Shown here: piece after piece, positions 15,315-64,000 of the stretch
Position numbering within the stretch: position 1 is the stretch's first letter
Layout: each line of letters begins with the position of its first letter
Made by a program: the position numbers and the translations under genes
Assembly: GCF_000004825.1 (NCBI RefSeq)
Contig: NW_008805089.1
Coordinates: 434,001 to 498,000, forward strand
Direction of reading: 5' to 3'
Source of the DNA: Heterostelium album PN500
Lineage: Eukaryota > Evosea > Eumycetozoa > Acytosteliales > Acytosteliaceae
Length of the DNA: 64,000 bases
The notes under the pieces: model-generated
Told to the model about the DNA's origin: nothing
Databases searched by the model: none
Seen by the model: the letters and a program-made list of their open reading frames with translations, nothing else

Positions 15315-18300
15315 ATGTCACAGAATTTAAAAGAGTTGAATAGTGATGATGTCACTTTCAATATCATATTGAATGAGATATTGAATCATTATTTGAAAAT
15401 AAAGGAATCTCATGGTAAGATTACATAAAGATCTTGGTAAAATAATTATGTTCTAATGATATATATTTTCAGTTATATTATTTGATTTTATAACAAAGTA
15501 TCCATGTTATATAGATGAATTACTTGATTATGGTAATCGAAAGATTCATAGATTAGAGATGACAGCAAGTGAGAGGAGGAGCAGTGGTAGTAGTAGAACA
15601 AATAATATTAGTAGTAGTTGTCAGAATCAGTATATTGATGATAATGAAAATGATCTGTCAAGAGATCTACTAGAAGAGAAACAACATTCAAAACAATTAA
15701 CAAATAGTAATGGCAACAACAAAAACAACATTAATAACAATTCATTTGTGTCGTCCGTTGATGCATCTAGTTTCGATCCACACCAATTAGCTGCACTCAC
15801 TAAAACAGATGATGAAAATGATGATGGTGATAGTTTAGATAAGTCAATTGATTTACCAACAACTGACATCAAACAACAACAGCAACAACAACAAGATAAT
15901 AGTCCAATTCAAATTGTTTCAGATGATAGAGAAGAAGAAGATGATAGAGAGGATGAAGAAGATGAAGATATGATAGATCTAAGTACACAGAAACCAATGA
16001 ATGAAATTGATAATGACAATGAAGATGACAAAGACAACGACAATGACGACTACAACAAAGAGCATAAGAAGATGGCTTTGAATCAATCGGTATTGGATGA
16101 ATCTGAACCACTTGTTGCCAAGAATAATAAAGAGAATCTAATAGATGAATACTCAGTCCTCAAGAAGGACTTTGAATACATTGTAAACTCAACACAATCT
16201 CATTCCATTAGATTGAATGAACTCTGTCAACTTCTTTCATTTAAATTAAATGAACAACTACTCCAACATCATAATAATAATAATAATAATCCTAATAACA
16301 CTAGTATTGCACTACCAACACAAACACAAGAATTCAATATCAACAACCCTAATAATGATCATATAATAGATATGGATATTTTAATGGATGAAATCAATAA
16401 TAAGAATCAACAGCAAAAACAACAATCGTATTTATCACTTTTCAAAAGAGAACCAATGGAGAATACATTGGATACACACGTCGAACGTCTAAAGATGGTA
16501 AATTCCAATTTCCAAGTGATATTGGAACAGTTCCAAGAGAATCTAAAGTCATTCAGTAATACACTGCTCATCAATACCAAGTTGAACAGATGCTTCGAGT
16601 TGATCGAACATCTCATCGAGAATCTTCATATCACTGGATGTGACACCGAGACCATCTACTCCAACCTGGAGTTCAAACTAGTTCAACTTACAACCACCAC
16701 AACAACCACTACCACAACAACTACATCATCGTCATCCAAATCATCATTATCAACTAAATCCAAACAATTACAACAACCTGATGTTCAGAATAATAATGAC
16801 CATGATGATGATGATGATGGTAAAGATTATGAAGATGATAATATTAGAATTAAACTTGAAAGATTGGAGAAACTTGAGAAGGAGAATAAGGAGTTGAAAG
16901 AGTTGGATGCGCAGAGAAATGCAGTGGTGGAACAACTTACTAGCACTTTAGATTACTTTACAAAGAAAGAGAAGGAATCATCGCTGGATGCCGATAAACA
17001 TGGTGGTATGGACGATGACCAAATGTCATCACAGAAACAACGTGACAATGTAGAAAGACAGAGATTGCTAGACCGTATTAAAGATCTAGAGTTGGAGAAT
17101 GCCGAGTTGACTTCTACCACCAATATCAGTCGTATCCAAGAGGAGAACAACCAACTCGCGCTAACAATACAACACCTTGAAAAGAATGAATTTGAAACAA
17201 ATCAGCTAAATGATAATCTAAACAAACAAATTACAGAATTAAATCAACAATTATTACATATGTCAAAACAACAACAACAACAAAATAATAGTAATAACAA
17301 TAACCATAACAATAACATTAGTAATAATTCAAGTTTAGATATTTTAGATGATAATAATAATCAGAGTTGTAATAATGTTAGTAATATAGTTTATAATAGT
17401 TCAACGAGTTGCTATGGTGATGAAATGGATAATTCGGTATCGATGGATGAGTTTCAGTTGACTCAACCGAGTGGAACTACTGGGTTCGATGCACACTACA
17501 AGGAGATAATCTCATTGCTGCGGGTGGAGACTAGTTCCGATGTTTCTATACATTCTTCGTTGATTCGCAAGCTGCGAGGTATGATTGAATCGAATGTGTC
17601 TAGTAGTGTGGAGATTCACAAGTTGAAGGAATGCATTGAATTTCTACGAGAGGAACTGGCACAGTCTACAAGTGAGAAAGAACAACAAATAGAGATGTTC
17701 TTAAAGGAAAAGGATGAGCGAGAGTTATATTACTATGAGGATAAGATGAATGCTTTGAAACAGTTGGAGAAACAGATGGAGAAAGAGATGGCTGCGTCGA
17801 CAAAGAAGTGTAGCGATAATGAGAATAGCGATAATGACGTTAGTTTCAATACGATGGATCTGGTGGAGGAGATGCGTGCCAAAACTCTGGAGTTAGAGAG
17901 CGACTTGGCAATGAGAAACAAGGAGTCAGAGTCGTTGCAGTTCAGGATTACCTGTTTGTATCAAGAGATTAACGATGCATCTTGTAACCTGATATCACAG
18001 CAAGAGCAGAATGGACACCTTCATAAGCAGATCGATGAGTTGTCTGTGCAGTTGGCAGAGAAGAATCAACAGAGCGAGCAGATCCAGTCGCAACTGGAGG
18101 AGTCGAAAAAGTCGAGTTTCAAGTTGACCGAAAAGTATGAGGAGTACCGGACGGTGAGCGAGTATACCATTGAAGAGTCGAAACAGGAGAGTATGAAGAT
18201 CGCTCAGATCCTGACAAAGACCGAGGAGAAGTTGAAATTGAAGGAGTTGAGAGAGCTGAGTTTGACACACCAGATCACACAGCTGCAAGAGGAGTTGGTC

Positions 18301-20344
18301 GTTCTCAGGAATCAGGCACTTCAGATGGAGACAGAGAAACAGCTGCAGTTGGAAGAGGTCAAGTCGCTCAGTAACAATGTTGGACAGCTCAATGGAATGC
18401 GCAGTGCACTCAGCGAGAGCAAGGAAGCCAATAAGAAGCTGCAGAGCGATATGGACTCGTTGTTTGAGAGGATGGATGTCTTGAATCAGAGAATTAACGA
18501 GCAGGACGAAGAGATCAACCATCTCTTGAAACAAAAGACAGAAGCGCAGCTTCAGATTGCTCCGTTGCGCGATGAGATCGAGAAGCACCGCGCCAACACT
18601 ACGCTGCTTGACAAACTGGCTGGTGACTTCTCGACTATGAAGAGAATGTATCAAGAGAAGACGGAGCAAGTCGATCTACTCACTAAGAAATACAAGACAA
18701 AGAAGAGTGAATTCAATGAACTATCGCATCGCATCGACCAACAGGAAACCTGTAACAAAGAGTTGGAGGAACAGAGCTACCAGACTGCACAGGAGCTGAA
18801 AACAATGCAATTCTCACTGCAATCCACTAGCGATACACTCAAGAAGAAGGAGAAACAACTAGAGGATAATAAGGTGGAGATCGATACGTTGAAGAAGGAG
18901 CTGGCAGAGGTTAGACAAACCGTTGAAATTCTACAATCACAGCAATCGCAACAGTCGAATAGTCATAGAAAACGCGAAGATGATTTGAATCAACAGGCCT
19001 TTGAATATAAGACTAAGCTACTGGAGCATATGAAAGAGTTGAACGATATCAAACAGCGATATGAACAGACTGTAATTGCCCATGAAGATCTGTCGAATCT
19101 CTGTCAGCAGCTGACCAAGGAGCGTGACAAACTCGCCCAATCGTTGGAGTCAATGAAGCTTCTCAAGGATGGATCTACCGGCGGTCCGAAAGACGTCGAG
19201 CTGCGAACCACCAAGAAAGAACTGGAGTTTGTCAAACTGAAAATGGACGAACTCTCCAAACTGCTAGTAGTAAAGAACAATATGATCGAGCTACTACAAT
19301 CGAATCATCCAATCAACAATGTATATAATGATTTACAATTGCCATCAGCACAAACAACAGCATCGTCCAATCACAATACTGCTAATACTCCACAAGCAAA
19401 CAACGAAACACCCGATACATCGAACAAACAATCAACTACCACAACCGCAACAGATACAACCAACAAAGAGAACCAACAAAACTCTGTTGTTGGTTTACCT
19501 AAACCTCCACTACCGGCAATCAAAAAACAACCACTCAAGATCATCAAGAAGCTGCCAGCCAAGAAAAGAGAATTGGAATCAACAACAGAACAACAACAAC
19601 AGCAATCTACAGTTATTACAACCACCACCGTTTCAAATCATTCAACTACAACATCCACTACAAGTAGTAGCAGCAGCAGTAACGGTACAGAAACAGTCAA
19701 TCCTGCGAACAAGAGAGCAAAGACCGCAACTAGCTATAATATGATGGTGACAGGATTCAAGAGTGATAAGGAAAAGGATGAAATCACTGAGATGGCTGTT
19801 AAGCTGGGTGGTGTAGTCCGATCGACCAATGAATTCGATCGATATATAACCCATGTAGTAAATGCCAGTTTTGAAACACCAACAATGAAGTCGATCGCAG
19901 GTGCACTCACAAACAACTGGGTAGTTTCCACTCAGTGGATAGTCGACAGTTTCAAGGCAGGCAGATTCCTCTCCGAAGAATACTATGGTAATCGTACAAT
20001 GGAGAGACCACTAGAGAACAAAAAGATCATGATAACACCACCATTCGAAGAGAAAGCACCACTCACCAAAAGAAATATTCGTGCACTAATTACAAATGTA
20101 AGTTTATATTATCAAAACAAAAACAAAAAAAAACAACACATTTACATTAACGGTATCTAACTAACTACTAACCAACCACTTCATATCTATCTAGATTGGA
20201 AGAGGTTCTATTGTAGATAAAGAAAAAGATGCTGATTATATTTTAGTTGGAAATGATATGGAGACTGAATCACCGAGACATCTCAATTGGCGTGGCTTCA
20301 TTAATTTAGTAAATGTTAAACCTCCGAAATCGAATCAATCATAA
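15315..20344 (+). CDS. long coiled-coil protein with C-terminal BRCT region
   Basis: Three exons (15315-15414, 15473-20097, 20195-20344), 1,624 residues, all in phase. The first ~300 residues are low complexity with Asn, Gln and acidic runs. Residues about 420-1280 are mostly heptad-rich coiled coil (EKLEKENKELKEL, many Leu/Gln/Glu repeats). A Thr/Ser/Pro-rich linker follows. The last ~200 residues form a BRCT region: NMMVTGFKSDKEKDEIT, LGGVVRSTNEFDRYITHVV, NWVVSTQWIVDSF, then a weaker second unit across the last exon (DYILVGND...NLVNV). BRCT modules bind phosphoproteins in DNA-damage and cell-cycle signalling, so the protein is probably nuclear or centrosomal/kinetochore-linked. I cannot match it to a named family member. 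An E2F-like site lies upstream. Confidence 0.82.
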
Positions 20345-25262: not shown

Positions 25263-26732
25263 TTAAGAATTGTTATTAATTGTTATTTTTATATTCTTTT
25301 TAAAATGAAATCTATGGTTTTCATAGTTTGGATCAGTTTTTGTGTTGGCAACTAATGTTTTATGTGAAAATGTGAATGGTGTGAATGTTCGATTGATTTC
25401 ATAGATCATGTATTGTTCGCTGTTTGAATTGAAATAAAAAATTAACTTTTCTAGTGTTGGTAAGCAAATGATTGTCTTATAACCACTGATATGGAATCCT
25501 CTTTTTGAGACTTGAGGTTGTTCTTCGTCTGGTGTTGCGGTTTGACAGAATGCTTTGTGTTTGTTTATATCTTCTAGAGTTTCAAGACATCGCAGCTTTA
25601 AGATAATAGGAATCCAGCTGCTTACCAAAGATAACGTGAGATGCGTGATTGCCAAGTGTTCCACATCGAATATCTTAATGAGAAGTTCCGGTTGACGAAA
25701 GAAAAAATCAGTTTGTATCTTTCGAAGACTGGCAATGCTAGTGGTGATTGGAGTGTTGCGCGAAAACCAAACTTGGTCAAATTCATTGGCGACTCGACCT
25801 ATTGTTTTGAGAGAACAATGAAATTCTGGACGCATCGAACTGTAGAGATCAAATGGATGAATACTATCAAAGATGATCTTTCTGAATGGATGATCTATTA
25901 CACGATAGAAAGATATTTGATTCTCTCTAGAAAGTGGAATATTGCTGGCTTTGATATTGATCAATGTCGGTACGGTTGCCAGTTGAAGCAAGTCATCTCC
26001 ACTCAGATGATGATATTGGAGATCGATCGATCTTAGATTCTTGAATAATTTCAATGTGATTTGGAATGTTTTATTGAAGGGTGTTTTATTCATCTGCGGA
26101 TTAGAGGATACAAGTTTCTGAATGGATTCACAAATTCTTGATTGTAGTGGTGATATTCGTTTGTTTGTGAATGGAATGAGTTCGCAATCAAAGAAAACAA
26201 TAGAATCAATATTGGTTATTGGATTCATTGGATTGGTAATAGCTCTCTCCAATGATTGTTTATCGATATTCTTGATACGTGTGAGCCAACTACCAACGAT
26301 CGCATGAAACTGTTTGTTGATACAAGTTAATTGTAATGCTTCTCTATATCGAGTCATAATATCGGTACTTTGTAAACGTAATTTCCAACATATTCTTAAT
26401 ATCTCTATGATCGTTGTAGTAGGAAGAGAATACTCGACAAAACCACGATGAAATTCATTCATACTATGATTACTTTTAGGTGTTGTGTTCAAAGCATCGT
26501 TTTGACAATGAAAGTCAAGTATCGATTGAATCAATTCATCTTTTCTAAATGATTTTGAAGCTTCTATTTTATTCTTTTTGCATATCTTTAAAAGTTTATC
26601 TTTTGTTAACTTTTTTAATTCTGATTGACTTGATTCAATTGTAATTTGTGAAGTTGTTGTTATTGCTATTGTTGTTGTGGTTGTAGTTGATGTTGAAGTA
26701 TTGTCTGATATCATATCACTTTTTACTTTCAT
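25263..26732 (-). CDS. SAP-like/F-box-like family protein, copy 1
   Basis: Intronless, 489 residues. After a Thr-rich head, residues about 36-75 form a helix-turn-helix-like SAP/HeH segment (LTKDKLLKICKKNK...SFRKDELIQSIL). At about 100-150 there is an F-box-like region (SLPTTTIIEILRICWKLRL...CINKQFHAIVGSW). The rest has leucine-rich repeats (LFKNLRSIDLQYHHLSGDDL, LAITHLTL...ILKLRCLETLED). F-box/LRR proteins recruit substrates to SCF ubiquitin ligases; the SAP-like head could bind DNA. Both are inference from weak motifs. It is one of a tandem family on this strand, about 70-80% alike by eye to copy 2, suggesting recent duplication. Confidence 0.8.
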   Translation of the reverse strand: MKVKSDMISDNTSTSTTTTTTIAITTTSQITIESSQSELKKLTKDKLLKICKKNKIEASKSFRKDELIQSILDFHCQNDALNTTPKSNHSMNEFHRGFVEYSLPTTTIIEILRICWKLRLQSTDIMTRYREALQLTCINKQFHAIVGSWLTRIKNIDKQSLERAITNPMNPITNIDSIVFFDCELIPFTNKRISPLQSRICESIQKLVSSNPQMNKTPFNKTFQITLKLFKNLRSIDLQYHHLSGDDLLQLATVPTLINIKASNIPLSRENQISFYRVIDHPFRKIIFDSIHPFDLYSSMRPEFHCSLKTIGRVANEFDQVWFSRNTPITTSIASLRKIQTDFFFRQPELLIKIFDVEHLAITHLTLSLVSSWIPIILKLRCLETLEDINKHKAFCQTATPDEEQPQVSKRGFHISGYKTIICLPTLEKLIFYFNSNSEQYMIYEINRTFTPFTFSHKTLVANTKTDPNYENHRFHFKKNIKITINNNS

Positions 26733-27027
26733 TTAATAACACATATATATATATATTTTTATTAAAGTTAATGCAGGCTGAACAAGACTGCATTCGAATA
26801 AAAATAAAATCGATTTGAAAAAAAAAAAAATCTTAAAAGTAGTTAATTTTTTGAAAAGTATTGATGAAAGTATAGCATACTTTAACGAAGCTCTGATGAT
26901 TTTCAGAGTAGATAAAGATAAATTTAAGTAAATAAATAAATTGTCACTATTCATTATTTTGCATAATGATGACCAAGGTGTTCAGAACAGAGCAGTTTTA
27001 TTTGAAACTTGAATAAAAATATTATTA

Positions 27028-28452
27028 TTATTTAATACATTTTTTAAAATGATAACGATGCTTTTCATAGTTTGAATCAGTTTTTGTGTTGGCAACTAAT
27101 ATTTTATGTGAAAATATGAATGGTGTGAGTGATTGGTTGATTTCATCGATCATTGACTGTTCGCTATTCGAATTGAAATAAAGAATTAGCGTGTCAAGCG
27201 TTGGTGATTTAATGATTTGTTGGTAGCTACTAATTGGTAATCCATCTCTCATTGAGACCTGAGGTTGTTCTTCATCTGGTGTTGTGTTTCGATTGATTCT
27301 TTTGTGTGTAATTGTATCTTCTAGAGCTTCAAGACATCGCAGCTTTAATATGATAGGAATCCAGATGGTTACTGATGTTATTGTGAGATGCGTGATTGCC
27401 AGGTGTTCCACATCGAGTACCTTAAAAATGTGTTCGGGATGACGAAAGAAAGCGGTAGTCTGTATCTTTCGAAGACTGGCAATGCTATTGGTGATTGGAG
27501 TGGAATTCAATAGCAAATCTGGTTTATATTCATTGGCGACTCTACCGATTGTTTTGAGAGAACAATGAAATTCTGGACGCATCGAACTGTAGAGATCAAA
27601 TGGAAACAAATGATCAAAGATGATCTTTCTGAATGGATGATTGATTGCGCTATAGAAAGATCTTAGATTCTCACGAGTAAGTCGAATTTCGTTGGCTTTG
27701 ATATTGATCAATGTCGGTACGGTCGCCAGTTGAAGCAAGTCATCTCCACTCAGATGATGATATTGGAGATCGATCGATCTTAGATTCTTGAATAATTTCA
27801 ATGTGGCTTGGAGTGTCGGTTTGAAGGGTAATTGATTCATCTGAGGATTAGAGGATACAAGTTTCTGAATGGATTCACAAATTCTTGATTGTAGTTGTGA
27901 TATTCGCTTGTTTGTGAATGGAATGAGTTCGCCATCAAAGAAAACAATAGAATCAATATTGGTTATTGGATTCATTGGATTGGTAATAGCTCTTTCCAAC
28001 CCTTTTTTATCGATATTCTTGATACGTGTGAACCATCGACTAACTATCGCATGAAACTGTTTGTTGATACAAGTCAGCTGTAATGCTTCTCTATATCGTC
28101 TCATAATATCGGTGTTGAGTAAACATAATCTCCAACACACTCTTAATATCTCTATGATCGTTGTAGTAGGAAGAGAATACTCGACAAAACCACGATGAAA
28201 TTCATTCATACTATGATTACTTTTAGGTGTAATGTTTACCTCATCATTTTGACAATGAAAGTCAAGTATCGATTGAATCAATTCATCTTTTCTAAATGAT
28301 TTTGAAGCTGCTATTTTATTCTTTTTGCATATCTTTAAAAGTTTATCTTTTGTTAACTTTTTTAATTCTGATTGACTTGATTCAATTGTATCAGATGTTG
28401 TTGTTGTTGTTGTTGTTGTTGGTGTTGTCGTAGTATTATCATTGTTTATCAT
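27028..28452 (-). CDS. SAP-like/F-box-like family protein, copy 2
   Basis: Intronless, 474 residues, collinear with copy 1 throughout: Thr-run, SAP-like ELKKLTKDKLLKICKKNKIA, F-box-like block, and LRR segments ending near TLILYFNSNSEQSMIDEINQ. Copies 1 and 2 are nearly identical in the first 230 residues. They differ more in the C-terminal third, where loop residues vary, which is the pattern expected if the repeat region selects ligands. The DNA 3' ends of the copies share a short sequence around the stop (TTTTTTAAAATG on the plus strand), a trace of the duplication unit. It is separated from copy 1 by 295 bp of AT-rich spacer. Confidence 0.8.
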   Translation of the reverse strand: MINNDNTTTTPTTTTTTTTSDTIESSQSELKKLTKDKLLKICKKNKIAASKSFRKDELIQSILDFHCQNDEVNITPKSNHSMNEFHRGFVEYSLPTTTIIEILRVCWRLCLLNTDIMRRYREALQLTCINKQFHAIVSRWFTRIKNIDKKGLERAITNPMNPITNIDSIVFFDGELIPFTNKRISQLQSRICESIQKLVSSNPQMNQLPFKPTLQATLKLFKNLRSIDLQYHHLSGDDLLQLATVPTLINIKANEIRLTRENLRSFYSAINHPFRKIIFDHLFPFDLYSSMRPEFHCSLKTIGRVANEYKPDLLLNSTPITNSIASLRKIQTTAFFRHPEHIFKVLDVEHLAITHLTITSVTIWIPIILKLRCLEALEDTITHKRINRNTTPDEEQPQVSMRDGLPISSYQQIIKSPTLDTLILYFNSNSEQSMIDEINQSLTPFIFSHKILVANTKTDSNYEKHRYHFKKCIK

Positions 28453-28736
28453 GTTGTATCAAATATATATATATTAAAGTTAAATATCTTTGATTTACTT
28501 TATTTGATTCAGCTGAATATCAAAACAATGCATAAAAATAGGTCAAGAATCTATCCTTATGGAATATGTAAAAAAATATTTATGAAATTTTTATTCCCCA
28601 TGACTTTTGATATGACAAAGAATACAGGTAAAGATAGGCACAGTGTTGTTTTGAGTTAATAATCTATTTTATTATTATTTTAGGTTGTTGGATCAATATA
28701 TTATTTGAATATATTAACCTAACCTATTATTATTCA

Positions 28737-30961
28737 TTATTTAATATATTTTTTAAAATGATATCGCTCCTTTCCATAGTTTTTAGCAGTTATATATGAA
28801 AATTTGAATGGTGTGAGTGATTGGTTGATTTCATTGATCATCGGTTTTTCGAGATTCGAATCGAATTTAAGAATGAACTTGCAAAGCGTTGGTAAGCCAA
28901 TTATTTGTTGATAGTCACTCACTGGTAATACTTTTGCACTCGGACTCACTCTCATGATACCAAATGATGATTCATCTTCCAATAAGTACTCTTCGTCGTC
29001 ATCCTCTTCATCATCTGATGATGTTTCACATGTTATAGCGTGTTCTGTTTCATCTTCTAGAGTTTCAAGACATCGCAGCTTTAATATAATTGGAATCCAC
29101 TTGGGTATAAAAGATAACTTGAGATGAGTGATTGCCAGGTGCTCCACATCGAATATCTCAAAGAGAAGCTCCGGATGACGAAAGTAAAATGTATTTACAG
29201 TTTGTAGCTTTCGGAGACTGGCAATGCCATTGGTGATTGGAGCGAGATTCAAATCCAAAACTTTGCTTTTTTCTCGAGAGATCACACCGATCGTTTTAAG
29301 AGAACTATGAAATTCTGGACGCAATGAACTGTAGAGATCGAAGGGATCCATGCGACCAAAGATGATCTTTCTGAATGGATAATCGATTGCACGATAGAAA
29401 GATTTTAGTGTACTGCGTTCATAATGAATTTGGCTTATTTTGATATTAACCAATGTGTTGTCCGTCTAAGGACAATAAGGTAGCCGCCAAGGCAATGCCG
29501 GTACCTATCAATCAACATCAATAATAATTACCAGCCAACATATAAGAAACAGTCAATTATAATTAATTAAATTAATTAATCAACTAAATAAGTAATAGTT
29601 CAAAACAACAGATCAAAATAATAATTAAATTAGAATCTGTTGTTTCTAAATTAAGTATTCAACACTCAGCCGTCAAGCTTCTCAATAATGAATATATTGA
29701 GTTTAACGCGACGTTAAAGATTAATTCAATGGATTCAATATTCAAGATATAAAATTAAAGAAATTAAATAAATAAAATAAAACTTGGAAATTAGATTATA
29801 TAAAACATTATTAGAAATAACTCTTTATTATTATTAATTACAAACCACATGAGAGATGGCAGATCCAAATGAACAATTAACAGAAACACCCAACACCACC
29901 ACAACCACAACAACCACTGGATCAACGGCATCTACAGATCCAACATCAACAACAACAACAACCACAACAAATGATCTTACAATGAACGATCTCGAAAGCA
30001 ATAATGATAATGATTCAATCCCATCAACCTCTACTTTGTTTCCTGATATCGTCCCTCCCGTCACATGCCCAGACTCACTACCATCCGATATATTCCAAGC
30101 GACTCTGGCCGCATCCAAGACTCCGATCTCTTCCTCTATCGTACCTGGTCAACTAGAGAATAAACACAATGTCGACATGGTAGCCAGGTAGAGCATGTCA
30201 TTTACACTCAGATCGTGAAGGAAATCGATCGATCTGAGATTCTTGAATAGTCCCAATGTGATTTGGATAGCCTTTTTGAATGGAGATGCTCTATACAGAT
30301 CATCAGAGGATTCAAGTTTCTTAATTGATCCACAAATTTGCGATTGTAGTGGAAACCATGGTCTGGTTATGAATCGATTAATTCTGCCTCCAGAGAAAAC
30401 AATAGAATCTATTTTCTTTATTGGATTCATAGGATTGGTAATAGCTCTCTCCAATCCTTTTTTATCGATATTCCTGATATGTGTGAACCAACTACCAACG
30501 ATCGCATGAAACTGTTTGTTGATACTAGTCAGCTGTAATGCTTCTCTGTAGCGATTCTTAATATCTTCACTTTGTAAACGCAATATCCAACACCTTCTTA
30601 ATATCTTTATGATCGTTGTAGTAGGAAGAGAGTACTCAGCGGAATCACTATTAAATTCATTCATACTATGATTACTCTTTGGTGTTGTGTCTACCACATC
30701 TTCTTGACTAGGAATAATCAAGTCAGGTTTACAATGAAAGTCCAATATCGATTGAATCAATTCATCTTTTCTAAATGATTTTGAAGCTCGTATTTTATCC
30801 TTTTTACATATCTTTAAAAGTTTATCTTTTGTTAACTTTTTTAATTCTGATTGACTTGATTCAATTGTAGTTGTAGTAGTTAACGGAGTGTCATCTTCAT
30901 CTGATATCATATCAATGTTTACTGTCATGTTGCTAACATATGAATATATATTAAGGTCCAT
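28737..30961 (-). pseudogene. SAP-like/F-box-like family, copy 3, interrupted
   Basis: The N-terminal part (30961 down to about 30167) and the C-terminal part (29455 down to 28737) both align with copies 1 and 2. They are separated by the 711-bp insertion at 29456-30166. The N-terminal part has the Thr-rich head, SAP-like segment and F-box-like block; the C-terminal part has the LRR segments and an extra acidic loop (DDEEDDDEEYL). Both parts remain open apart from the insertion. The coding sequence was therefore whole until the insertion, or the insertion is recent. The gene cannot make the full-length protein as it stands. A truncated N-terminal product is possible. Confidence 0.8.
29456..30166. 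mobile_element. LTR-like insertion with 5-bp target duplication
   Basis: A 711-bp block begins TGTTGTCC and ends AATAAACA, so it has the TG...CA ends typical of LTR retroelements. It is flanked on both sides by CAATG (29451-29455 and 30167-30171), which occurs once at the matching site in copies 1 and 2. It holds an AT-rich first half and a Thr-rich open frame from 29856, in the position where a gag-like start could lie. No reverse transcriptase or integrase is present, so the element is broken or non-autonomous: a short derivative or an atypical solo LTR. The exact family is not assigned. The intact duplication suggests it is young. Confidence 0.7.
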
Positions 30962-31059
30962 TATTTGAAATAGAATGAAAAAAAAAAAATCAAAGATAAC
31001 ATTTTATAATTTTAGTTTGGTGAGTTTTATTTATATTTCTTTTTTTTTATTATTTTAGC
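30962..31059. other. spacer between family copies
   Basis: Short AT-rich spacer with an A-run. Nothing else seen. Confidence 0.4.
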
Positions 31060-33323: not shown

Positions 33324-35588
33324 ATGTTATCTTCAATAAAATCGAAATCAAATATTAATTTAGTAAAAAAAACATTGTATAATAATATTAGAAATACAAC
33401 AACTTCTGTAACAACAACATCATCATTGTACTCTTCATCTTCATTATTCAACAATCAACAACATAAACATCAACAACAACAACAATCATTTACAACATAT
33501 ATAAACTCTAACAATAATCAATATTCATTATTAAATTCGAAATCAACTACAATTTCAACTTTGTCATCATTATTTAATAAACAAAATTCATGTATCAATA
33601 ATAATAATAATAATAATAACAATAAATACTATTCTACTTCAAACCCACCCGTATGTTATCATTACACAAAAGAAAATCATCATATGATGATCAAAAAAAT
33701 AATATTAACTTTTTTTTTTTTTTAAACTACTAGGATCAAATTTTAAGAAAAGTAGTTACATCAGAACAACAAGCATTATTCGATAGGAATTCATTGTTGT
33801 TAGAACAACTTCAGAATGATTTGCAGGATTTTAGTGCACCCGAAGAGTCGAGACAACAAATCAGAGACGCCATCGAGCAGTTGAAAGATGGTTTGTTTTT
33901 GTTGGTGGTGGTCGGTGAGTTCAACAGTGGAAAGAGTTCATTCTTGAATGCACTGCTTGGAAACACCTATCTCAAGGAGGGTATCACTCCAACCACCTCG
34001 AAGATCAACATTCTAAGGTACGGCGACAAACTAGAGCACCAGCCAGGCAGAAACGACGAACAGGAAATCGTAAAGTTACCGGTCAACTGGCTGCGTGACA
34101 TCTCGCTGGTCGACACTCCCGGAACCAACGCAGTGGTGAAAGGTCACCAGCAGATCACCGAGCATTTCATTCCGCGCTCCGATATGGTGTTGTTTGTTAC
34201 TTCGGTGGATCGCGCCTTCTCAGAGAGCGAGCGTGTCTTCCTCAGCAACATTCGCGCCTGGCGCAAAAAGATCGTTGTCATCCTCTCGAAAGCCGATCTC
34301 ATTGAGCACAATCCCATGTCCGACGCAGCTGCCGACCTCGCCGAGGTAACCAAGTTTGTTCAGGACAATTTCAATACGCTGCTCGGTGTCAGTCCAGTGC
34401 TGTTTCCAGTCAGTTCGAAGCTGGCGCTAAAAGCCAAGCTCACCTCTGCCAAGACTGGCGACCAGCTTGCCAACAGCGAAATCTGGAAATCCAGTAAATT
34501 CGCCGAACTCGAAAAATATATTCTCCACACGTTGGACAGTTCGCAACGCACCAAGTTGAAGTTGCTCAACCCACTCGGTGTCGCCGAGAACATTCTCCAG
34601 CAGTTCCAGGCAGAGTTGGCCGAGCGCTCCAAAGTTTTGTCGGTCGACCAACGCACCCTGAAATACGTCGAGGAACAACTCGATGCCTTTAGAAAAGAGC
34701 TTCAAAAGGATTTGGAATTCCACTTGCAGCGTATCGATAATATCCTACTGAAGATGGAGACGAGAGCCGACGTATTCTTGGACGACAATATCAAGCTCAG
34801 CAACATTCTCGGTTTGTTGCGTTCGGAGGAGTTAAAGTTGAAATTCGAAAAGGAGGTGGTCAGCAGCACATCCCATGAAATCGAAACCAATATCTCTGCA
34901 CTGATCGATTGGATCGTCGAGAAGAACTCCAAACAGTGGCGCGCCATCATGGAGTATATTGACACCCGTTCCAGCTCGCGACTCGAGAAATTCATTGGCA
35001 ATGTAAACCGATCCGGTGACTTCCTCAACACCAGAATGACCCTTTTGAAATCGATTGGTGAAGGAACCTCAGATGCACTCTCCAAATACGATAAAGATAA
35101 AGAATCAACAAAGATTTCACAAGAAGTAAGTTGCTAATAATAATAATATGTTTATTTTGTATTTATAAATATAAACTAATATGTATAATTTATAGATTAG
35201 AAATACTGTATTTAAAACGGCAGCAGTTGAATTGGGAGCAGTTGGTTTGGGTACAATTTTGACAGCTTCACTTTTAGATTTGTCTGGTATTGTTGGTGTT
35301 GGTATTTTAGCAATTAGTGGATTGGCTTTGGTTCCTCTTAAGAAGTCGGCATTGAAAAAGACTGTTCATGCCAAGGTACACGATTTACGTTTCAATCTTT
35401 CCAATTTATTGAAGCATCATTTCGAATCAGAGTTGGAAATTGGCATTCAAAAGATGAAGGATGGAATCAGTCCATTCAGTTCCTACGTACACGCAGAGAA
35501 CGAGAAAATCAATAGTTCACTCAACAAGATTCAAATTTATTCCGCAACAATTTCAAAGTTAAGAGAAGATATCGAGAAACTTAAATAG
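33324..35588 (+). CDS. FZL/bacterial-dynamin-like GTPase, probably mitochondrial
   Basis: Three exons (33324-33650, 33734-35125, 35196-35588), 703 residues. The GTPase motifs are G1 GEFNSGKSS near residue 170, a threonine-containing TPTTSK switch (G2), G3 DTPGTN near 236 and G4 LSKADL near 293. Long helical bundle segments follow. A paired hydrophobic region at about 587-622 (GLGTILTASLLDLSGIVGVG) could insert in a membrane, followed by a terminal coiled coil. This is the arrangement of FZL of plant plastids and bacterial dynamin-like proteins, which fuse or remodel membranes. The first ~110 residues are Ser/Thr/Asn/Lys-rich without acidic residues, a plausible mitochondrial presequence extended by Asn runs. 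Codons in exon 2 are GC-richer than in neighbours. Confidence 0.85.
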
Positions 35589-55725: not shown

Positions 55726-55984
55726 AGAATAAATAAATAAATTATAAATAAAATAAAATGCTTTAATAAATAAACAAAAACATTAAAAGAATATTCTATA
55801 AGATTGATAGGTTCCCAAGTGTCTGTTCAATGCATTCAGAATCATCAAAAGAATGGATAAAAAAAAAAAATTTCAATCATTACCCAAAATAGTCATAGAT
55901 GTCACACATCATCACTATGCTTTAATCAAAACAACTATTAATTAATTTAAAAAAAAATAACTACGGACATTCCAGAACAACAAG
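55726..55984. other. spacer between RNF213-like gene and transposon
   Basis: About 260 bp of 3' flank of the giant gene up to the left terminal repeat. A-runs at 55860-55870 and 55951-55958; no gene. Confidence 0.4.
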
Positions 55985-56115
55985 ACAAAGCGTGGTGGCA
56001 GGTCTTAAACAACCGAAAGTAAATTTAATATGGCACTCAAAAGATCAAAAAGGGGAGACAGATTTTTTGCAACTCAAAAAAAAATAAATCCCAGAAAATA
56101 AAAAAATCGAAAATG
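55985..56115 (+). repeat. left terminal inverted repeat
   Basis: Block 1 is at 55985-56001 and block 2 at 56012-56032, separated by a 10-base insertion absent on the right. Block 3 is TTTTGCAACTC plus an A-run near 56073-56091, ending at ATG|GTAAGC (56113). GTGGCAGGTCT at 55995-56005 recurs inverted relative to the end at the other terminus. The repeat seems to carry the promoter and start codon of the outer gene. Confidence 0.75.
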
Positions 56116-57235
56116 GTAAGCAAAATTTGTGTCAGAAAAACTTCTTTGTTTTTTTTTTTTTAAAAAAGATTTTTTTTTAATTTTTTTTTTAATTTTTTTT
56201 TTTTTTGTATTTTTTTTTTTTTTTAAATTTATTTTTAAAATTATTTATTAATATTATTTATTTTAATAATATAAGGATAATAATAATTCAGTTTTAAAAA
56301 GAACAGTGTCCCCAAATAAAAAATTATTTAATGATTATTTTGTTGTAGATGAAATTTATAAGTTAGCCACCAGAATCAACGGTCCTTTGCCAATGCCTGA
56401 GGAGACACTAGTAGTGAACCCAATACATGGAGTAGTGGACCTAACACAGGTGGACCCAATAGATGTAGACTTTACATTAGTGGACATAGTAGAGTTGGAC
56501 CCTATGCAAATAGACCCAGTACTAGCTGTGGATCTAACACAGGTGGACCCAATTGACGCATACCCGACATTAGTAGAATTGGACCCAATTCATGCATACC
56601 CGACATTAGTGGACCTAGTAGAATTGGACCCAATGCCGCTAAACCAAGAAGGAGTGCGTGAAGACCATTTCTATGCCATCAGACCATTGTTTGAAACAAT
56701 CAGATTAGATCTATCAACTAATTTGGCTGCATACTACTGTGCATCCAATGAATTAGCTCATGGTCAAGGTGCTAAATATAAGACTCCTCACACAGCTTTT
56801 AATCCATATACGATTACATCATTAGAGCGTACTCAGCTCCTTCATTATTTTAATCATCACTATTATGGTACCCAAATGATCCCTAAAGACTTTAATGATG
56901 GATTTTTCATCTTTCGTCATCATTACAACCACACAACAACCAATATTCCTATTTTGCCTCGACTTGGTGGAAATATTGAAGAATGTTTCCATTCTATAGA
57001 CAATAATGAAATTTTAGATGATCTCAAAAATGGTCTACCAACTCAATGGGAGCAGAACAACAAAATCGATTTAAAAAGACAAAGTCAGAATGGTCTTTTA
57101 GAGTATGGTTTTTTTGATAGCAATGAAGAAGCAGAGGAATGGAGATATCATATCTGTATAATTAATTATTTGAAAATTAATATATATAAAAATCATATCT
57201 TGTTAACAACCGAGATGAAAACTCTCTATCAATAA
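56113..57235 (+). CDS. transposon outer gene, left; unknown protein
   Basis: Two exons. Exon 1 is only the ATG (56113-56115) inside the terminal repeat, followed by a 160-bp T-rich intron starting GTAAGC. Exon 2 is 56276-57235, giving 320 residues (MDNNNSVLKRTV...). Residues about 50-115 contain four to five degenerate repeats on the pattern VDLTQVDPID / YPTLVDLVELDPM. The C-terminal two thirds are globular and His/Tyr-rich (AHGQGAKYKTPHTAFNPYTI, LLHYFNHHYYGTQMIP, DGFFIFRHHYNH). No known fold is recognised. It is probably an accessory factor for transposition or expression. The start is inferred from the identical layout at the other end; an unspliced start is not available because no in-frame ATG precedes. 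Confidence 0.65.
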
Positions 57236-57355
57236 ATTTAAAAATTATATTCAACGTGACTTCGTTTTATTAATTGTATTACTTTATATTAAAAGTTATA
57301 AAATTAGATTTATTTTAATACATCGTAGAAATCATGATCCATTGCAGCGAGGATA

Positions 57356-60300
57356 TCAAGAGTCTTGAGTTGAATTTTGACTGTCAAAAAAATTTTCGAT
57401 AAATTCCTTTAAGTTTAGTGTGGTACTGAATGTTGAGCTGGAAGAAGTTGTAACTACGGGAGGAGAACCTATGTTTTGTCTTGTGGTCATGACAAATGTA
57501 GTGATCGCATTATCTTTCTTATGCCTTTTCATGAATTTACTTAATTCAACTTCGTCCACCTCGCTTTTACTCCTCTTTTTCGACAATTCAATTGTGATAT
57601 CTGTTAAAACTCCAACTGATCTTTCAGATTTATTTTTGATAAGATCTAATTTACGATCTATATCTTCAGTTGATTCTGAGTATGTTGGAATTGCTTGCTT
57701 CATCTTACGTTCATCGTACAACTCTGAACCAGTTGTAACCATGTCTCTGATTTCATCACAAATTGGTTTAAAATCGGGATTGCGAGTTTCCACATGATAT
57801 TTGATTTTTTCTGCTATTCGTATTAATCTTTTTGGTACCGTTTTAATATTCTTATTATTCTTCTCAGATCTGTGGTTTTTCTTATATATTACTGTAATTA
57901 TTTTTATTATATTATCTAAAATAAGTTGATGTATACTATTATTACTATTATTATTGTTATTAATATTATTAATGTTGTTGTTGTCGTTGATTACTATAGT
58001 TGATTTCTGTAGAATATAACTTAATAAAAAGGAGATAAATATTGGAGAGTTGAAATAGATTTGTACATCTTTGAATTCGATCGTGCTGAAAAATTTAAAA
58101 AAATCAGGTGGATGATTTTCAAGTAAATCTGTACTTAAAGTTCTCTTTAAATATGATTTCACATTACCATTGGGCTGGCAAATATAGAAAAACATTGGTG
58201 TTTTCATTGAACAGAACTCCGATGGGACAATGAGGAGTTTAAGCTGTTGATTAATCTTGGCTGCACTTTGGGACAAAATAATAAGTTGTATTTTGTCACC
58301 AATGGCAATAGGCTTTGGAATGTCAGATAATTCAAAAGAACTAATCTCGAAGATTGGTTGAAGTGTTCCAACAAAAATTTTCTCTAAATCTTAAAAAAAT
58401 AATTAGTTTAAATTTCATTTCGATTTTTTTATAACTTACATGTTTGTAGTATTTTGTTAAGTTTCTCTATTGATATACTTTGTTCATTTTGTATTCCGAA
58501 TAGACCTGTATATTCATCATCAACAAGCTGAGCATCAGATAAAATTTTTTTATCTTTCTCTGCCTTCACCTTTATTATATCAAGAATTTGAGAATATACA
58601 TTTGTATAAAATCCATCATGCAAACTAATGGTGTGTCGAATGTGCTCACCTCGCAAAGATCTTGCATCGTTAAACCCAAAGTTTAAACTCATTACAAAGA
58701 GTCTAATAGTGAGAATAGGAACATAATAGTGGGTATTCATTAATTGAATCAATGAATCATTGCCTTTGTTGTTGTTTCCATAGAAACCCAAAAATCTTTT
58801 CCAATTTGACTCGAAACCTTCATTGTTGATCATTGTTAAACTTAGTCCATGTTTCTTGCATATGCGCAAATACCGCGCAATATGTAATAGTATGTGAGTG
58901 TAATAAGTCATCTCTCTAACTCCAAAGAGATCGACAAACAGTGTTAAAAATTGATTGCACAACGTTTGAATTGAAACTATTTCATTGTCTGTCATCTCTT
59001 TAATCTCTTGACTTGTTGAATCCAGTTTATTAAAGACTTTCGATGCTTCCTTGAATACCAATGATAGACTTTCGCCAATTGGTAGATCGCCAAGCTTATT
59101 CTTATGAAATTGTTTCACAATCTTAGCTTCTTCGGTTTTGTCAAACTCTGAAAGAATTCCCGGTAAATATTTGAAGATTGCATCACATTCACCACCGGTG
59201 AGCATTCCAACCTCATCAACATATATATATTGACTTTGAGAAAACAAATTTGCTTTGGGATTTATACTTTTAAGCTCTGGAATTGATTGAAATGCTTCCA
59301 AAATGTAGGCAGTGAGATGTGTATGAATAGAAAAAGTTGATTTCAACAACTTTTCTGTTATTCTTTGTTTACCTAGTAAAATAATTAAATATTAAGTCAA
59401 TTTTTTATAGAAATACAATTGATCTATGATAAGCTTACAATGAAGACTACAAATAATAAAAATTGCTTTAATAAGTAATATGTCCACGAGATTTCTACTA
59501 TTGTTCGCACCTATATAAAAATAATTAATACCAAATTATAAATTGTTTTTTCCTTCAAGTTACATTAATTACAATTGGCTTCACCAGTGTGTTCGCATTT
59601 TATACCTGGAAAAAGATTATTTTCCTCATCTCTACAATTTACACATTTAGCATCATTAATCTGTGTTTCCAAAAGCGCGGCTTTGAAATAATCGGCTGAT
59701 TTCTTACAACATGGGCAAGGTGATTCACCGTTATAATCTGATTTGTCTCTTGCGAGATTTTGAGCCATTTTTAGATCGATTGAGGAAAAAAATTTGATGG
59801 GAATTGTAACAACATCATTTGCAAAATTGAATGTAACTTCTTTAATAGAATTAATTTGTTCTATTACAGAAGAAAGAAATTTGGCAGTATTTGATTCTTT
59901 TCCAAAACCAATCCCTAACATAAGAATCGAAGAGCATGACTGTGAGGGTAAATTTGCAAGAAACAATGGGACTATGCCAATTCCAAACAACCCTTCATTA
60001 ACTTTGGGTGTTCCATCAGATGATATCTTGAAGATGCCCATATTTTTAACCTTTTGCAAAAAGCTTTTGAAGTATTCAGATTCAAAAATCTTTTTACTAT
60101 TCTTTAGCTGATTGATATTCTCAGTATCATTAGAATTGTCAAAAACACCATGTTTTTTTGAATCCATAAAAAAAATTGTGAAAGACAATTGAAACATATA
60201 TTTGATGACATGTTCCACATTTAGACAAATGCTCGAAAAAACTGAATTTCTGGGTAAAAATTGTTTTCTAAAATCCAGTAGGAGTTGATAAAATCTTTCG

Positions 60301-60992
60301 CCAATACGATCATTAGATACTGAGTGTGCAATTGTCTCAACATGTTTTGATATGTCTCCATTGGTAAAATCACCAGCATTGCTCGAAGATCTTTGCCAGG
60401 GAGAGATAGGAAAGAAAATTGGATTGTCAACTTCCAAAGAACCCACTGAAGTGTAACCTACATTCACAATTGATTGCATTAACGTACATTCTGAAAAAGC
60501 TGACGCATTCCTAATACTGTTTGTTGATACCAATTTATCTGAAGTAGGTTTGAGAATATTGTTGCTGAGTAGAGACTGTCCATATGAAATTCCAAGGCAT
60601 TTCGATGAGATTGTTGTTCTAATGATATGTTCCTCTTCAACTATTACTTTTATCTGAACACGATTGTCTTTACCATACAAAAGGTCTTGATATTTTGTGT
60701 TGCTATTTACTTCTGCAAAAAACTCTTCATTACTAACTTTAAAAATAGTAAACAACGATAAAATAATATTTATCAATGTCATTATTCTATTTTTTTTTGA
60801 ATCTGTATCCTTTAATGATTTATATTCTTTTATATGTGCTCTATCTTTATTATTGGTGATATTGTCACTATTAACTATATCAATGAAAAACCTATTAAAT
60901 GAACCTTGGGGTCTCACTACATTATCCGTTTCATCACTACGCCCAACAGAGATTGTAATTCCTGTAAAATTAAATACATGATCTTGTTCCAT
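57356..60992 (-). CDS. transposase-like protein of the DNA transposon
   Basis: Four exons (60992-59585, 59510-59439, 59372-58440, 58389-57356), 1,148 residues, all phases consistent. Residues about 404-465 hold SSIDLKMAQNLARDKSDYNG followed by CPCCKKSADYF and CVNCRDEENN...GIKCEH. This resembles the Asp-plus-zinc-knuckle segment (DLKxxxxxLG...CxxC) of large RNase H-fold transposases. Near 676, TMINNEGFESNWKRFLGFYG fits the later Glu/His-containing block (EG.E..xK) of the same proteins, after helical MTYYTHILLHIARYL. The C-terminal exon has an Asn run and a basic, possibly nuclear, tail (KKRSKSEVDEVELSKFMKRHKK). The likely role is cutting and joining element ends. Catalytic residues are proposed only. 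Confidence 0.6.
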
Positions 60993-61412
60993 TTATTTCA
61001 CTATGAATATAAAAATAAGTAAAACTAAATAAAAAATTGTGTTGTTGAACCGAAAGCAAAAAAAAAACTAAAAATTAAATAAAATCAAAACTAAAATTAA
61101 ATAAAATAAAAAAAAAATACAATTATTTATACGAATATTCTTGACACCAAATTTTTAGATTCTCCACAAAACAAAACTGGCTCTTGCTTGTATCCATAAA
61201 TCGAATAAAATTAAAAAAACCACTCTGATCACATTAACCCCACTAATTTTTAATTTTTACTTTTTTTTTAAAATTAATGCGCAGGCGAAAGTTGTTGGGA
61301 GCCAGTTTTGTTTTGAAAACATTTTTACACAACTGCAAAAAAAAGTGAAAAAATTGTATGGAAGTTTATTATAAAGATTGATAAAAAAAGTTTATAAATG
61401 AGTACTAGTCAT
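60993..61412. other. spacer inside transposon with inverted repeat
   Basis: 420 bp between the central gene's start and the 3' end of the right outer gene. A- and T-rich. It holds a perfect 17-bp inverted repeat, CAAAACAAAACTGGCTC at 61167-61183 and its reverse complement at 61299-61315. It must contain the central gene's promoter. Confidence 0.6.
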
Positions 61413-62984
61413 TCAACCAGTTAAATGATCCACAACCAAGGTCTTTTTTGGTGGTTCAGCGCCACGAACGCAGGCAGCATCACATTTCCAATTACGGTAT
61501 TTGAAATTACAAGTGACCATCCAAGTATAATGATTGTATACAAAAGACACACAATCTATCTTTGAATTGATTATATCTTTACTTGAAACAGATGTCCTTG
61601 CAAATACATTCTGGTGCCATCCATCGGTGTATAATGGTGGTAGCTTAAAGAGTTCTTCATTCATATTCGAATTTGATTTATACCTAGAAAAATCAAACTT
61701 AGTAGTTGGAGTTTGGACATCTTGATATCCAATACTATATTTTACTTTTTTGTTGGTCATCTTCATGTTTGTATCTGATAGTATTTAATTTGGTTAAATA
61801 TAATGTGTACACGTATAAAAAAACAAATAAAAAAATAATTACTTACCTGTTTGATGCTTGTTAAAGTGTGCCACCAACACTCCAAACTCCACAGTTCCAA
61901 TATCCAGATTTTTAACGCATTTTCCGCCACGTACCCCTAGTCTGTCATTGATTCTGTTTTCAGCCAGGAATAGAAACTGGTCCAACATTAATCTCTTATG
62001 TTGAAGCACTAAATCCTCTGTTGTAATACGAACTTCATTCCCGATATTGGTATTTTTGACGATATTCATCGATGTGCTCATCAATCTGTGTGGATCTTTA
62101 CTTTGATTACATTTGATGGATGGAACTGTTACTGCTACTGAGTTGAACTGTCGGTCGTCCATGTTGCTCTCATCTACATTGTGTATATGATTTGTTGATA
62201 TGGAAGATTCTGCCAGAGCACGTGCTGGGTGCAGTTGGACCGGATATTGCGGAGAATAGATATTTGGGCAAGAATAATACGATAATTCTACTTTTTTCAA
62301 GTGATGGACCATGGGAGTTTGAGATACTGGGAGACCAAAGACTACAACCTCAAGAGACTGGTCTGGAATGATTCTCTTATCATCAGCATCCACCCATATT
62401 ATTTCTCTGCGAGGACAAGGAACCACTGGAGCTGCAGGAGCATTGATTGGAGACGGTGTTGTTGGAACTATATTTGAAGTATCGACTGGGGACTGATCGA
62501 TAACTGGTATTGGGCTAGGTATTATAATACCTGTAGTTGGTTGTGGGGCAGTAATGATTGGAGACTGTGCAACCGGTGCGATGGGGGGTAGAACATCCTG
62601 AGTTGGTGCGATAACTGGAGTTGGTGCTACAGATGGAACAACTGAAGATACTACTTGTTTTGACTTGGATCTTCTTTTAGTCAATGTGGTTCTAGTTTCA
62701 TAGCAATTTAGTCTTTCAGGGAAAGTGGATTTTCTTTTCTGTGAATTCTTTATTCATTTTCCCAAATTAGTATAAAATTAATAATCAAAAATTGATAGTT
62801 TTTTTTTTATAAAAATCAAAATGAAAATATATGAAAAAAAAAATAATAATAATAAATAAAAAACAAAAATAAAAAAATAAAAATATAAAATAATAAATAA
62901 TAAAGGAAAAAAAAAAAAAAAGTAGTGTGGGGGAAAAAAAAATCTTCAAAAAAATCTTTTTATGACGCAATATTCACTTACCAT
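61413..62984 (-). CDS. transposon outer gene, right; unknown Pro-rich protein
   Basis: Three exons. Exon 1 is only the ATG (62984-62982) inside the right terminal repeat, followed by a 234-bp intron starting GTAAGT. Exon 2 is 62747-61847 and exon 3 is 61774-61413, giving 421 residues (MNSQKRKSTFPERLNCYETR...). Residues 35-130 are Pro/Val/Thr-rich (VAPTPVIAPTQDVLPPIAPV). A globular region follows (REIIWVDADDKRIIPDQSLE, VELSYYSCPNIYSPQYPV) with a C-terminal half rich in aromatic residues (LPPLYTDGWHQNVF, NHYTWMVTCNFKYRNWKCD). No family is recognised. Its mirrored start arrangement with the left gene suggests both are driven by the repeat ends. Confidence 0.65.
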
Positions 62985-63104
62985 TTTTTTTTTTTTGTGT
63001 TGCAAAATATTTTAAACCAAATGAACTGTGGCAGGTCTCTCATCAAAATTTATAGTGGATCAGTCTCATATTAAATTTACTTTCGGTCTGCCACCACGCT
63101 TTGT
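62982..63104 (-). repeat. right terminal inverted repeat
   Basis: Reverse complement of the left end: block 1 at 63088-63104, block 2 at 63067-63087 directly adjacent, then TTTTGCAACAC plus an A-run and ATG|GTAAGTG at 62984. An extra GTGGCAGGTCT lies at 63028-63038 on the plus strand, i.e. inverted relative to the terminal copy. The SDR reductase gene starts only 109 bp beyond this end. Confidence 0.75.
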
Positions 63105-63212
63105 ATTTTTACTTTTGTTTTTTAAATGGTTTGCAAACCACTATATTTATTTTTTTTGAAATCAGCTGAAATTATATAAACAATTTCTAAAGAAAGTTAA
63201 AGTAAATAATAA

Positions 63213-64000
63213 ATGACTGGTGAAAAAGTAGTTGTAACAGGCGCCACAGGATACATTGCAGGTATACAGATTCAAGACCTCTTGTCAAAGGGCTACAATG
63301 TATCTGCAATCGTCAGAAACAAGAGTAACACTGAGAAGTTGCAACACTTATTGCAGTTAGATGGTGCTTCAGACCGTTTGACTCTTGAGGAAGGTGATTT
63401 AGACACTGCTGACTACTCTACCATTTTCAAGGATGCCACTTATATCATCCACACTGCCTCACCTTACATCTACACCGCCGATGATCCCGAGCGTGATATT
63501 GTGCAGCCAGCCATCAAAGGTAACATCTCTGTACTGGAAGCAGCCGCTTTAATACCATCGATCAAGAAGATCGTTATCACCTCATCGACAGCTGCCATTT
63601 TCGATGCCTCAAAGAAGAAGGATGTCTACACTGAAGACGACTGGAGTGACGGTACCTCCATTGCTGCTCCTTACGCCTATTCAAAGTACTTGGCCGAGAA
63701 GCGTGCTCACGATTGGATTAAAAAGCGTCGTGAGACCAATCCCAATCTCTTTGAAGTAGTGTTTATCAATCCTGCATTTGTACTTGGTGCACCACTTGCC
63801 AAACATATCAATACCAGTATCAAGACATTCGCAGAGGCACTCACTGGTAGTCCACAGAACCGAAGAATCGGTGTTACCGATGTCCACGATGTTGTAGACA
63901 TCATTACCTACGTGATGGAAACCTCTGAGAACTTCAACCTACATAGAAAACTCGTTGCTAACGAAGTCATGACATTTAAGGAACTCGGTCAACGTGCAGC
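63213..64000 (+). CDS. extended SDR reductase, dihydroflavonol-4-reductase-like (partial)
   Basis: Open to the window edge; the first 262 residues are present without an intron. The N terminus MTGEKVVVTGATGYIAGIQ holds the TGxxGYIA dinucleotide-binding loop. HTASPY and VITSSTAAIF follow, then YAYSKYLAEK with the Tyr-x-x-x-Lys catalytic pair. The VTDVHDVVDI segment is typical of the DFR/cinnamoyl-CoA/aldehyde reductase branch of NAD(P)H-dependent extended SDRs. The substrate is unknown; amoebal homologues reduce carbonyls in small metabolites. The gene starts 109 bp past the transposon end, so its promoter must be very short or overlap the terminal repeat. The end is missing because the window stops. 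Confidence 0.88.
   Translation, partial: MTGEKVVVTGATGYIAGIQIQDLLSKGYNVSAIVRNKSNTEKLQHLLQLDGASDRLTLEEGDLDTADYSTIFKDATYIIHTASPYIYTADDPERDIVQPAIKGNISVLEAAALIPSIKKIVITSSTAAIFDASKKKDVYTEDDWSDGTSIAAPYAYSKYLAEKRAHDWIKKRRETNPNLFEVVFINPAFVLGAPLAKHINTSIKTFAEALTGSPQNRRIGVTDVHDVVDIITYVMETSENFNLHRKLVANEVMTFKELGQRA

What the first reader, a model, noticed from the sequence alone, without database searches (positions are those of the whole stretch)
56113..62984. Start codons of both outer genes sit alone in the terminal repeats as ATG-only exons
Seen: in each terminal repeat an A-rich leader ends in ATG followed directly by GTAAGC or GTAAGT. The first in-phase downstream exon joins as codon 2 on both sides (M-DNNN on the left, M-NSQ on the right), and neither long frame has a usable ATG of its own. 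Inferred: the repeat is a portable promoter plus start codon plus splice donor that can express whatever lies inside, letting the element swap cargo genes.
Basis: partly seen in the sequence, partly recalled or inferred. Interest (0 to 1): 0.8.

Follow-up and report, generated by a model that had tools for sequence, protein, structure and literature searches.

The report
Transposon ends carrying start-codon-only exons
A mobile-element-like stretch in an amoeba-type genome seems to carry, near each of its two ends, a start codon on its own just before a splice site, so that two genes with no visible likeness would borrow their first codon from the element's repeated ends; this rests on sequence only, and introns right after the start codon are already known from ordinary genes.

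Summary
At 56113 (+) and 62984 (-) an A-rich leader ends in ATG followed directly by GTAAGC/GTAAGT. In a bounded scan of ATG, donor and acceptor combinations at each end, only these ATG-only exons gave long products, and host-like codon usage runs upstream of the first internal Met in both frames. The ATGs lie 80 and 82 nt inside a 38-nt terminal inverted repeat core, in a patchily similar stretch. On the right a better-looking acceptor gives M-KRKS rather than M-NSQ. The two outer proteins show no detectable similarity, so what the ends share is leader, ATG and donor. Best reading: a 7.1-kb DNA-transposon-like element whose inverted ends each supply promoter (inferred), start codon and splice donor to a different gene. 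That this lets the element swap cargo is unproven: no second copy was found, in collections without amoebae. Start-codon introns are an established class, and 5' UTR shuffling through them was already proposed (PMC1626468). New variant of a known kind; moderate interest.

The parts
55985..56032 (+). left terminal inverted repeat core: 17 nt + 10 extra nt + 21 nt
   Evidence: 17 nt and 21 nt identical to the right core (alignment; 17 nt checked again)
56062..56087 (+). left shared block ATTTTTTGCAACTCAAAAAAAAATAA, likely T-run/transcription start and A-rich leader
   Evidence: local alignment with the right block, 3 of 3000 resampled pairs as good; promoter role inferred
56113..56115 (+). left ATG-only exon
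56116..56275 (+). left start-codon intron GTAAGC...ATAAG, 160 nt, 0-7% GC in its middle
56276..57235 (+). left outer gene, exon 2 with stop (320 aa with the ATG), no family match
57356..60992 (-). middle gene, 4 inferred exons (60992-59606, 59510-59439, 59372-58440, 58389-57356), 1141 aa, own ATG; candidate transposase by place and size
61413..61774 (-). right outer gene, exon 3 with stop
61847..62738 (-). right outer gene, exon 2 (starting at 62747 if the weaker acceptor is used); 418 aa in all
62739..62981 (-). right start-codon intron GTAAGT...CACAG, 243 nt, with TACTAAT near its 3' end
62982..62984 (-). right ATG-only exon
62985..63010 (-). right shared block ATATTTTGCAACACAAAAAAAAAAAA, directly before the ATG
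63067..63104 (-). right terminal inverted repeat core, 38 nt

Best explanation
55985-63104 is a 7.1-kb DNA-transposon-like element in what looks like a dictyostelid genome. Its two ends are imperfect inverted copies of one module: outer repeat core (probably the transposase-binding end), a short core promoter (T-run then GCAAC), an A-rich leader, ATG, and a splice donor. Transcription starts in each end and runs inward; the start codon forms the last three bases of exon 1; removing an AT-rich intron joins it in phase to a different gene on each side. Shown by sequence: the ATGs, the donors, in-phase acceptors, no other workable first exon within the stretches scanned, and coding signal upstream of the first internal Met. 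Inferred: promoter activity, actual splicing, the 5' ends of the transcripts, and that the middle gene is the transposase.
For: The scan returned two products per side, all four starting with the ATG-only exons at 56113 and 62984. Codon usage of the 39 left and 142 right codons before the first internal Met matches that of a host frame plus the middle gene (1 of 3000 and 0 of 3000 shuffles as good; among stop-free shuffles 1 of 86 and 0 of 2). If the introns are retained both frames end after 16 and 12 codons. GC falls to 0-7% (left) and 3-10% (right) in the introns and rises at the exons. TACTAAT lies near the right acceptor. Core-to-ATG spacing is 80 and 82 nt (counted). Shared block, 3 of 3000 resampled pairs as good. 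Upstream ATGs inside the element (56030; 63069, 63043) open frames of only 23, 8 and 21 codons, which fits transcription starting in the GCAAC block downstream of them.
Against: No RNA data. No second copy and no target-site duplication, so mobility itself is unproven. The middle protein has no significant family match, and a single-sequence model of its exon 1 is useless (pLDDT 31.8). The shared block touches the ATG on the right but lies 25 nt from it on the left, and the likeness after the donor is weak (p 0.044). The left acceptor ATAAG is weak. The first 20 right codons alone are not distinctive (141 of 673 stop-free shuffles score as well). Phase agreement is cheap (41 of 165). First exons outside the scanned stretches are not excluded.
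Confidence: 0.66

Rival explanations
1. Same exon structure, but plain inheritance (overlaps the best explanation): the ends were once duplicated as an inverted copy carrying promoter, start codon and intron, and the two genes have simply kept it; nothing is portable and no cargo is exchanged.
For: Shared block and near-equal core-to-ATG spacing; start-codon introns are an ordinary and often conserved class (PMC1626468, abstract and sections 7 and 8 read).
Against: The two proteins show no similarity (local score 34; 0.74 of 500 shuffles as good), so the genes behind the module are not recognisable paralogues; fast divergence could hide it.
Confidence: 0.45
2. The outer frames start at their internal Met codons or at first exons outside the scanned stretches, and the two ATGGTAAG sites are chance.
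For: Internal Met codons exist (residues 41 and 144). One further ATGGTAAG in the window (15412) can also be joined to a long host frame but reads, by eye, as an internal donor, so such sites occur without being start exons.
Against: Coding signal upstream of both Met codons; two sites at matching places have a chance of about 1.3e-5.
Confidence: 0.2
3. Decayed element: the ends and genes are relics and no product is made.
For: No target-site duplication, imperfect ends.
Against: All three genes can be read open over 320, 1141 and 418 aa with inferred standard GT-AG introns.
Confidence: 0.14

Closest known systems
Start-codon introns: phase 0 introns between codons 1 and 2 (Nielsen and Wernersson 2006, PMC1626468; abstract and sections 7 and 8 read)
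   Same: Same position and phase; that paper already suggests that the intron may let the 5' UTR take part in exon shuffling.
   Different: There in vertebrate, arthropod, fungal and plant genes, with ribosomal proteins overrepresented; here near-inverted copies at both ends of one element.
MuDR of maize (Mutator): promoters in the terminal inverted repeats drive two convergent genes (PMC3440606, passages seen)
   Same: Outer genes transcribed inward from promoters in inverted ends.
   Different: That MuDR genes carry their own start codons is recalled, not looked up. Repeat of about 215 bp there, 38-nt core here; a third, middle gene here.
Sola2-Fanzor elements of dictyostelids (PMC3627910, section 11 and passages seen)
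   Same: Dictyostelid elements whose one end is nearly identical and whose other part is entirely different, i.e. exchange of content occurs in such hosts.
   Different: TIRs of 12-13 or 21 bp with 4-bp AT-rich duplications there; no such duplication here, and kinship of the middle protein could not be tested.
Tdd, DDT and Thug DNA transposons of Dictyostelium discoideum (PMC5633606, passages seen)
   Same: Dictyostelid DNA transposons whose transposases, by that review, share no significant similarity with known ones, as with the middle protein here.
   Different: No sequences of theirs were at hand, so neither likeness nor difference could be tested; the paper of 2001 describing them is not held.
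Avian retrovirus env mRNA using the gag AUG through splicing (recalled, no call)
   Same: Start codon from a shared leader spliced to another gene.
   Different: Retroviral genome, several gag codons, one leader (recalled).

Membership tests
Start-codon intron genes | phase 0 intron directly after the ATG | tested here: inconclusive
   Sequence fits on both sides and no other first exon worked in the bounded scan; no transcript data.
Class II (TIR) DNA transposon | terminal inverted repeats | tested here: met
   17 + 21 nt identical, with 10 extra nt on the left.
Class II (TIR) DNA transposon | target-site duplication | tested here: not met
   None for 3-10 nt with end offsets up to 3 nt (exact below 6 nt, one mismatch from 6 nt). 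2-nt duplications not tested; could be lost.
Class II (TIR) DNA transposon | recognisable transposase | tested here: inconclusive
   1141-aa middle protein: no Pfam match over its first 811 aa at E up to 10; its exons alone gave only sub-threshold Pfam hits (Myosin_tail_1 E 0.0072, DUF6673 E 0.026), no NCBIfam hit, and for the two exons sent to PDB best E 1.6 and 0.23. A DDE reading with Cys pairs is by eye and recalled.
Sola2 | 4-bp AT-rich duplication | tested here: not met
   feature from PMC3627910 section 11.
Sola2 | Sola2-type transposase | not testable with these tools
   No Sola2 sequence was at hand.
Mutator/MuDR | 9-bp duplication | tested here: not met
   feature from a passage of PMC2725143.
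Mutator/MuDR | MULE transposase | tested here: not met
   No such Pfam model among the hits; distant kinship not excluded.

The most novel reading that the evidence does not exclude
The ends are a self-contained expression cassette (promoter, start codon, splice donor): any DNA that comes to lie between them with an in-phase acceptor is expressed without a start codon of its own, so the element can exchange genes freely, and splicing could act as its on/off switch.
Probability: 0.22. Interest if true: 0.72.

Novelty: new variant of a known kind. Interest (0 to 1): 0.45.

Why it matters
If transcripts confirm it, a transposon would use its ends not only as promoters but as the first coding exon of two genes without visible likeness. 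That would make an existing suggestion (start-codon introns as joints for shuffling 5' UTRs, PMC1626468) directly testable by comparing copies in related amoebae.

Tried and rejected
Relatives: protein scans of IMG/VR with middle exon 1, middle exon 3, right exon 2 and left exon 2 and of the prokaryote genome collection with middle exon 1 confirmed no relative; a repeat-core pattern had 0 matches in IMG/VR. These collections hold viruses or prokaryotes, so the failure says little about amoebae.

Families: the six exon translations against Pfam at E up to 1 gave Myosin_tail_1 (E 0.0072, middle exon 4) and DUF6673 (E 0.026, middle exon 3), both below their curated cut-offs; NCBIfam gave rsmB (E 0.062, right exon 3), below cut-off; the first 811 aa of the middle protein gave 0 Pfam families at E up to 10 and the joined right protein 0 at E up to 0.01. 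PDB by sequence: best E 1.6 (middle exon 1), 0.23 (middle exon 3), none (right protein), 0.061 (left, 30S protein S10, mostly over its repetitive stretch); all set aside as not significant. Structure models of middle exon 1 and left exon 2 had mean pLDDT 31.8 and 29.2, so no fold search was run.

Outer genes as paralogues: no similarity. A repeat reaching further outward than 55985/63104: only gapped, A-rich similarity. Repeats inside each end: none on the left, weak TTGCAAA-type ones on the right. Host start-codon exons: 9 host frames picked by eye from the 26 non-element frames, plus the middle gene; all 10 have an in-frame Met within their first 29 codons. They were picked for readable starts, so this is no unbiased rate.

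Papers: searches (one found no paper) showed, in the listings seen, no report of a start codon plus splice donor inside transposon ends; that is no proof of absence, and the library lacks most subscription journals.

Full report
What is there. The window is 32.5% GC with Asn-rich proteins and AT-rich introns and reads as a dictyostelid; this is inference, and no genome is held for it. A published table row lists genome A+T contents of 55.0, 77.6, 68.0 and 66.2% for dictyostelids (passage of PMC4334915, column heads not seen); the last two are close to this window. Between a large frame ending at 55268 and an epimerase/dehydratase-like gene at 63213, cut by the window's end (Pfam Epimerase E 5.5e-17), lies 55985-63104, bounded by inverted repeats with cores of 17 + 21 identical nt, the left with 10 extra nt. 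No target-site duplication of 3-10 nt was found.

Genes. Left gene, + strand, 320 aa; middle gene, - strand, 4 inferred exons, 1141 aa, with its own ATG at 60992; right gene, - strand, 418 aa with a further intron. None has a match above a curated cut-off or a significant PDB match; the sub-threshold hits are listed under Tried and rejected. That the middle gene is the transposase is inferred from place and size; a DDE-like reading is by eye only. A review says that the transposases of D. discoideum DNA transposons share no significant similarity with known ones (passage of PMC5633606), so the lack of a match is not strange for such a host.

The ATG exons. ATGGTAAGC at 56113 and ATGGTAAGT at 62984. 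Every ATG from 55851 to 56300 on the left and from 63200 to 62746 on the right, each donor of the kinds GT[AG][AGT]G or GTA[AT] in its open frame, and each AG from 56201 to 56400 or 62800 to 62651 were combined: only four combinations passed the length limits (270 aa left, 280 aa right, counted to the end of exon 2), two per side, all with the ATG-only exon. First exons outside these stretches, and acceptors deeper in exon 2, were not covered. The first internal Met is residue 41 (left) and 144 (right); codon usage upstream of it is host-like in frame (1 of 3000 and 0 of 3000 shuffles as good), though the first 20 right codons alone are not distinctive. If unspliced, both ATGs open frames of only 16 and 12 codons.

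Is it chance? ATGGTAAG occurs 3 times against 1.8 expected. The third, 15412, can be joined to a long host frame but, from the surrounding sequence, reads as an internal donor (my reading). Two at matching places by chance: about 1.3e-5 if independent (after the fact). Phase agreement adds little: 41 of 165 ATGGT sites can be joined to at least 200 aa.

Is it in the repeat? The ATGs are 80 and 82 nt inside the cores. In between, the block TTTTGCAACWCAAAAAAAA is shared (3 of 3000 resampled pairs as good) and the first intron bases after the donor are weakly alike (14 of 20, p 0.044). So the ATG and donor sit in an extended, eroded part of the terminal repeat rather than in its clean part. The block touches the ATG on the right and ends 25 nt before it on the left, so the two leaders have changed by insertion or deletion.

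Mechanism. T-run, then GCAAC, then an A-rich leader resembles a dictyostelid core promoter (recalled). Upstream ATGs at 56030, 63069 and 63043 open frames of 23, 8 and 21 codons, which fits transcription starting downstream of them, in the GCAAC block. Splicing would then join the ATG to exon 2. This is a start-codon intron, a known class for which a role in shuffling 5' UTRs has been suggested (PMC1626468). Promoters in inverted ends driving inward genes are known from MuDR (PMC3440606). Exchange of element content is reported for dictyostelid Sola2 elements (PMC3627910). What seems new, within the searches named in Tried and rejected, is the combination: one start-codon module in inverted copies serving two genes without detectable similarity.

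Limits. No transcript, no second copy, no named transposase, no duplication. Cargo swapping is therefore a hypothesis, not a result.

Noticed in passing
63127-63140: Perfect 14-nt palindrome TGGTTTGCAAACCA just outside the right end of the element, upstream of the epimerase-like gene (seen by eye).
   Followed up: no
56113-56142 and 62984-62958 (-): Read without splicing, the two ends begin alike: MVSKICVRK on the left and MVSEYCVIK on the right; whether this short shared stretch was once coding is open.
   Followed up: no
56435-56658: The left gene contains a degenerate repeat rich in VDLTQVDPID / VELDP units (direct repeats D3 and D6).
   Followed up: no
25263-31003: Cluster of tandem paralogous host frames on the - strand (25263, 27028 and 30149 share an ELKKLTKDKLLKICKK stretch; 28737 resembles their later part; by eye).
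   Followed up: no
574-646: tRNA gene on the - strand (Rfam, 67.1 bits).
   Followed up: no
33737-35134: Frame with a dynamin-family GTPase domain (Dynamin_N E 1.2e-24).
   Followed up: no
15463-20157: Long host frame with a C-terminal BRCT domain (E 9.9e-8).
   Followed up: no
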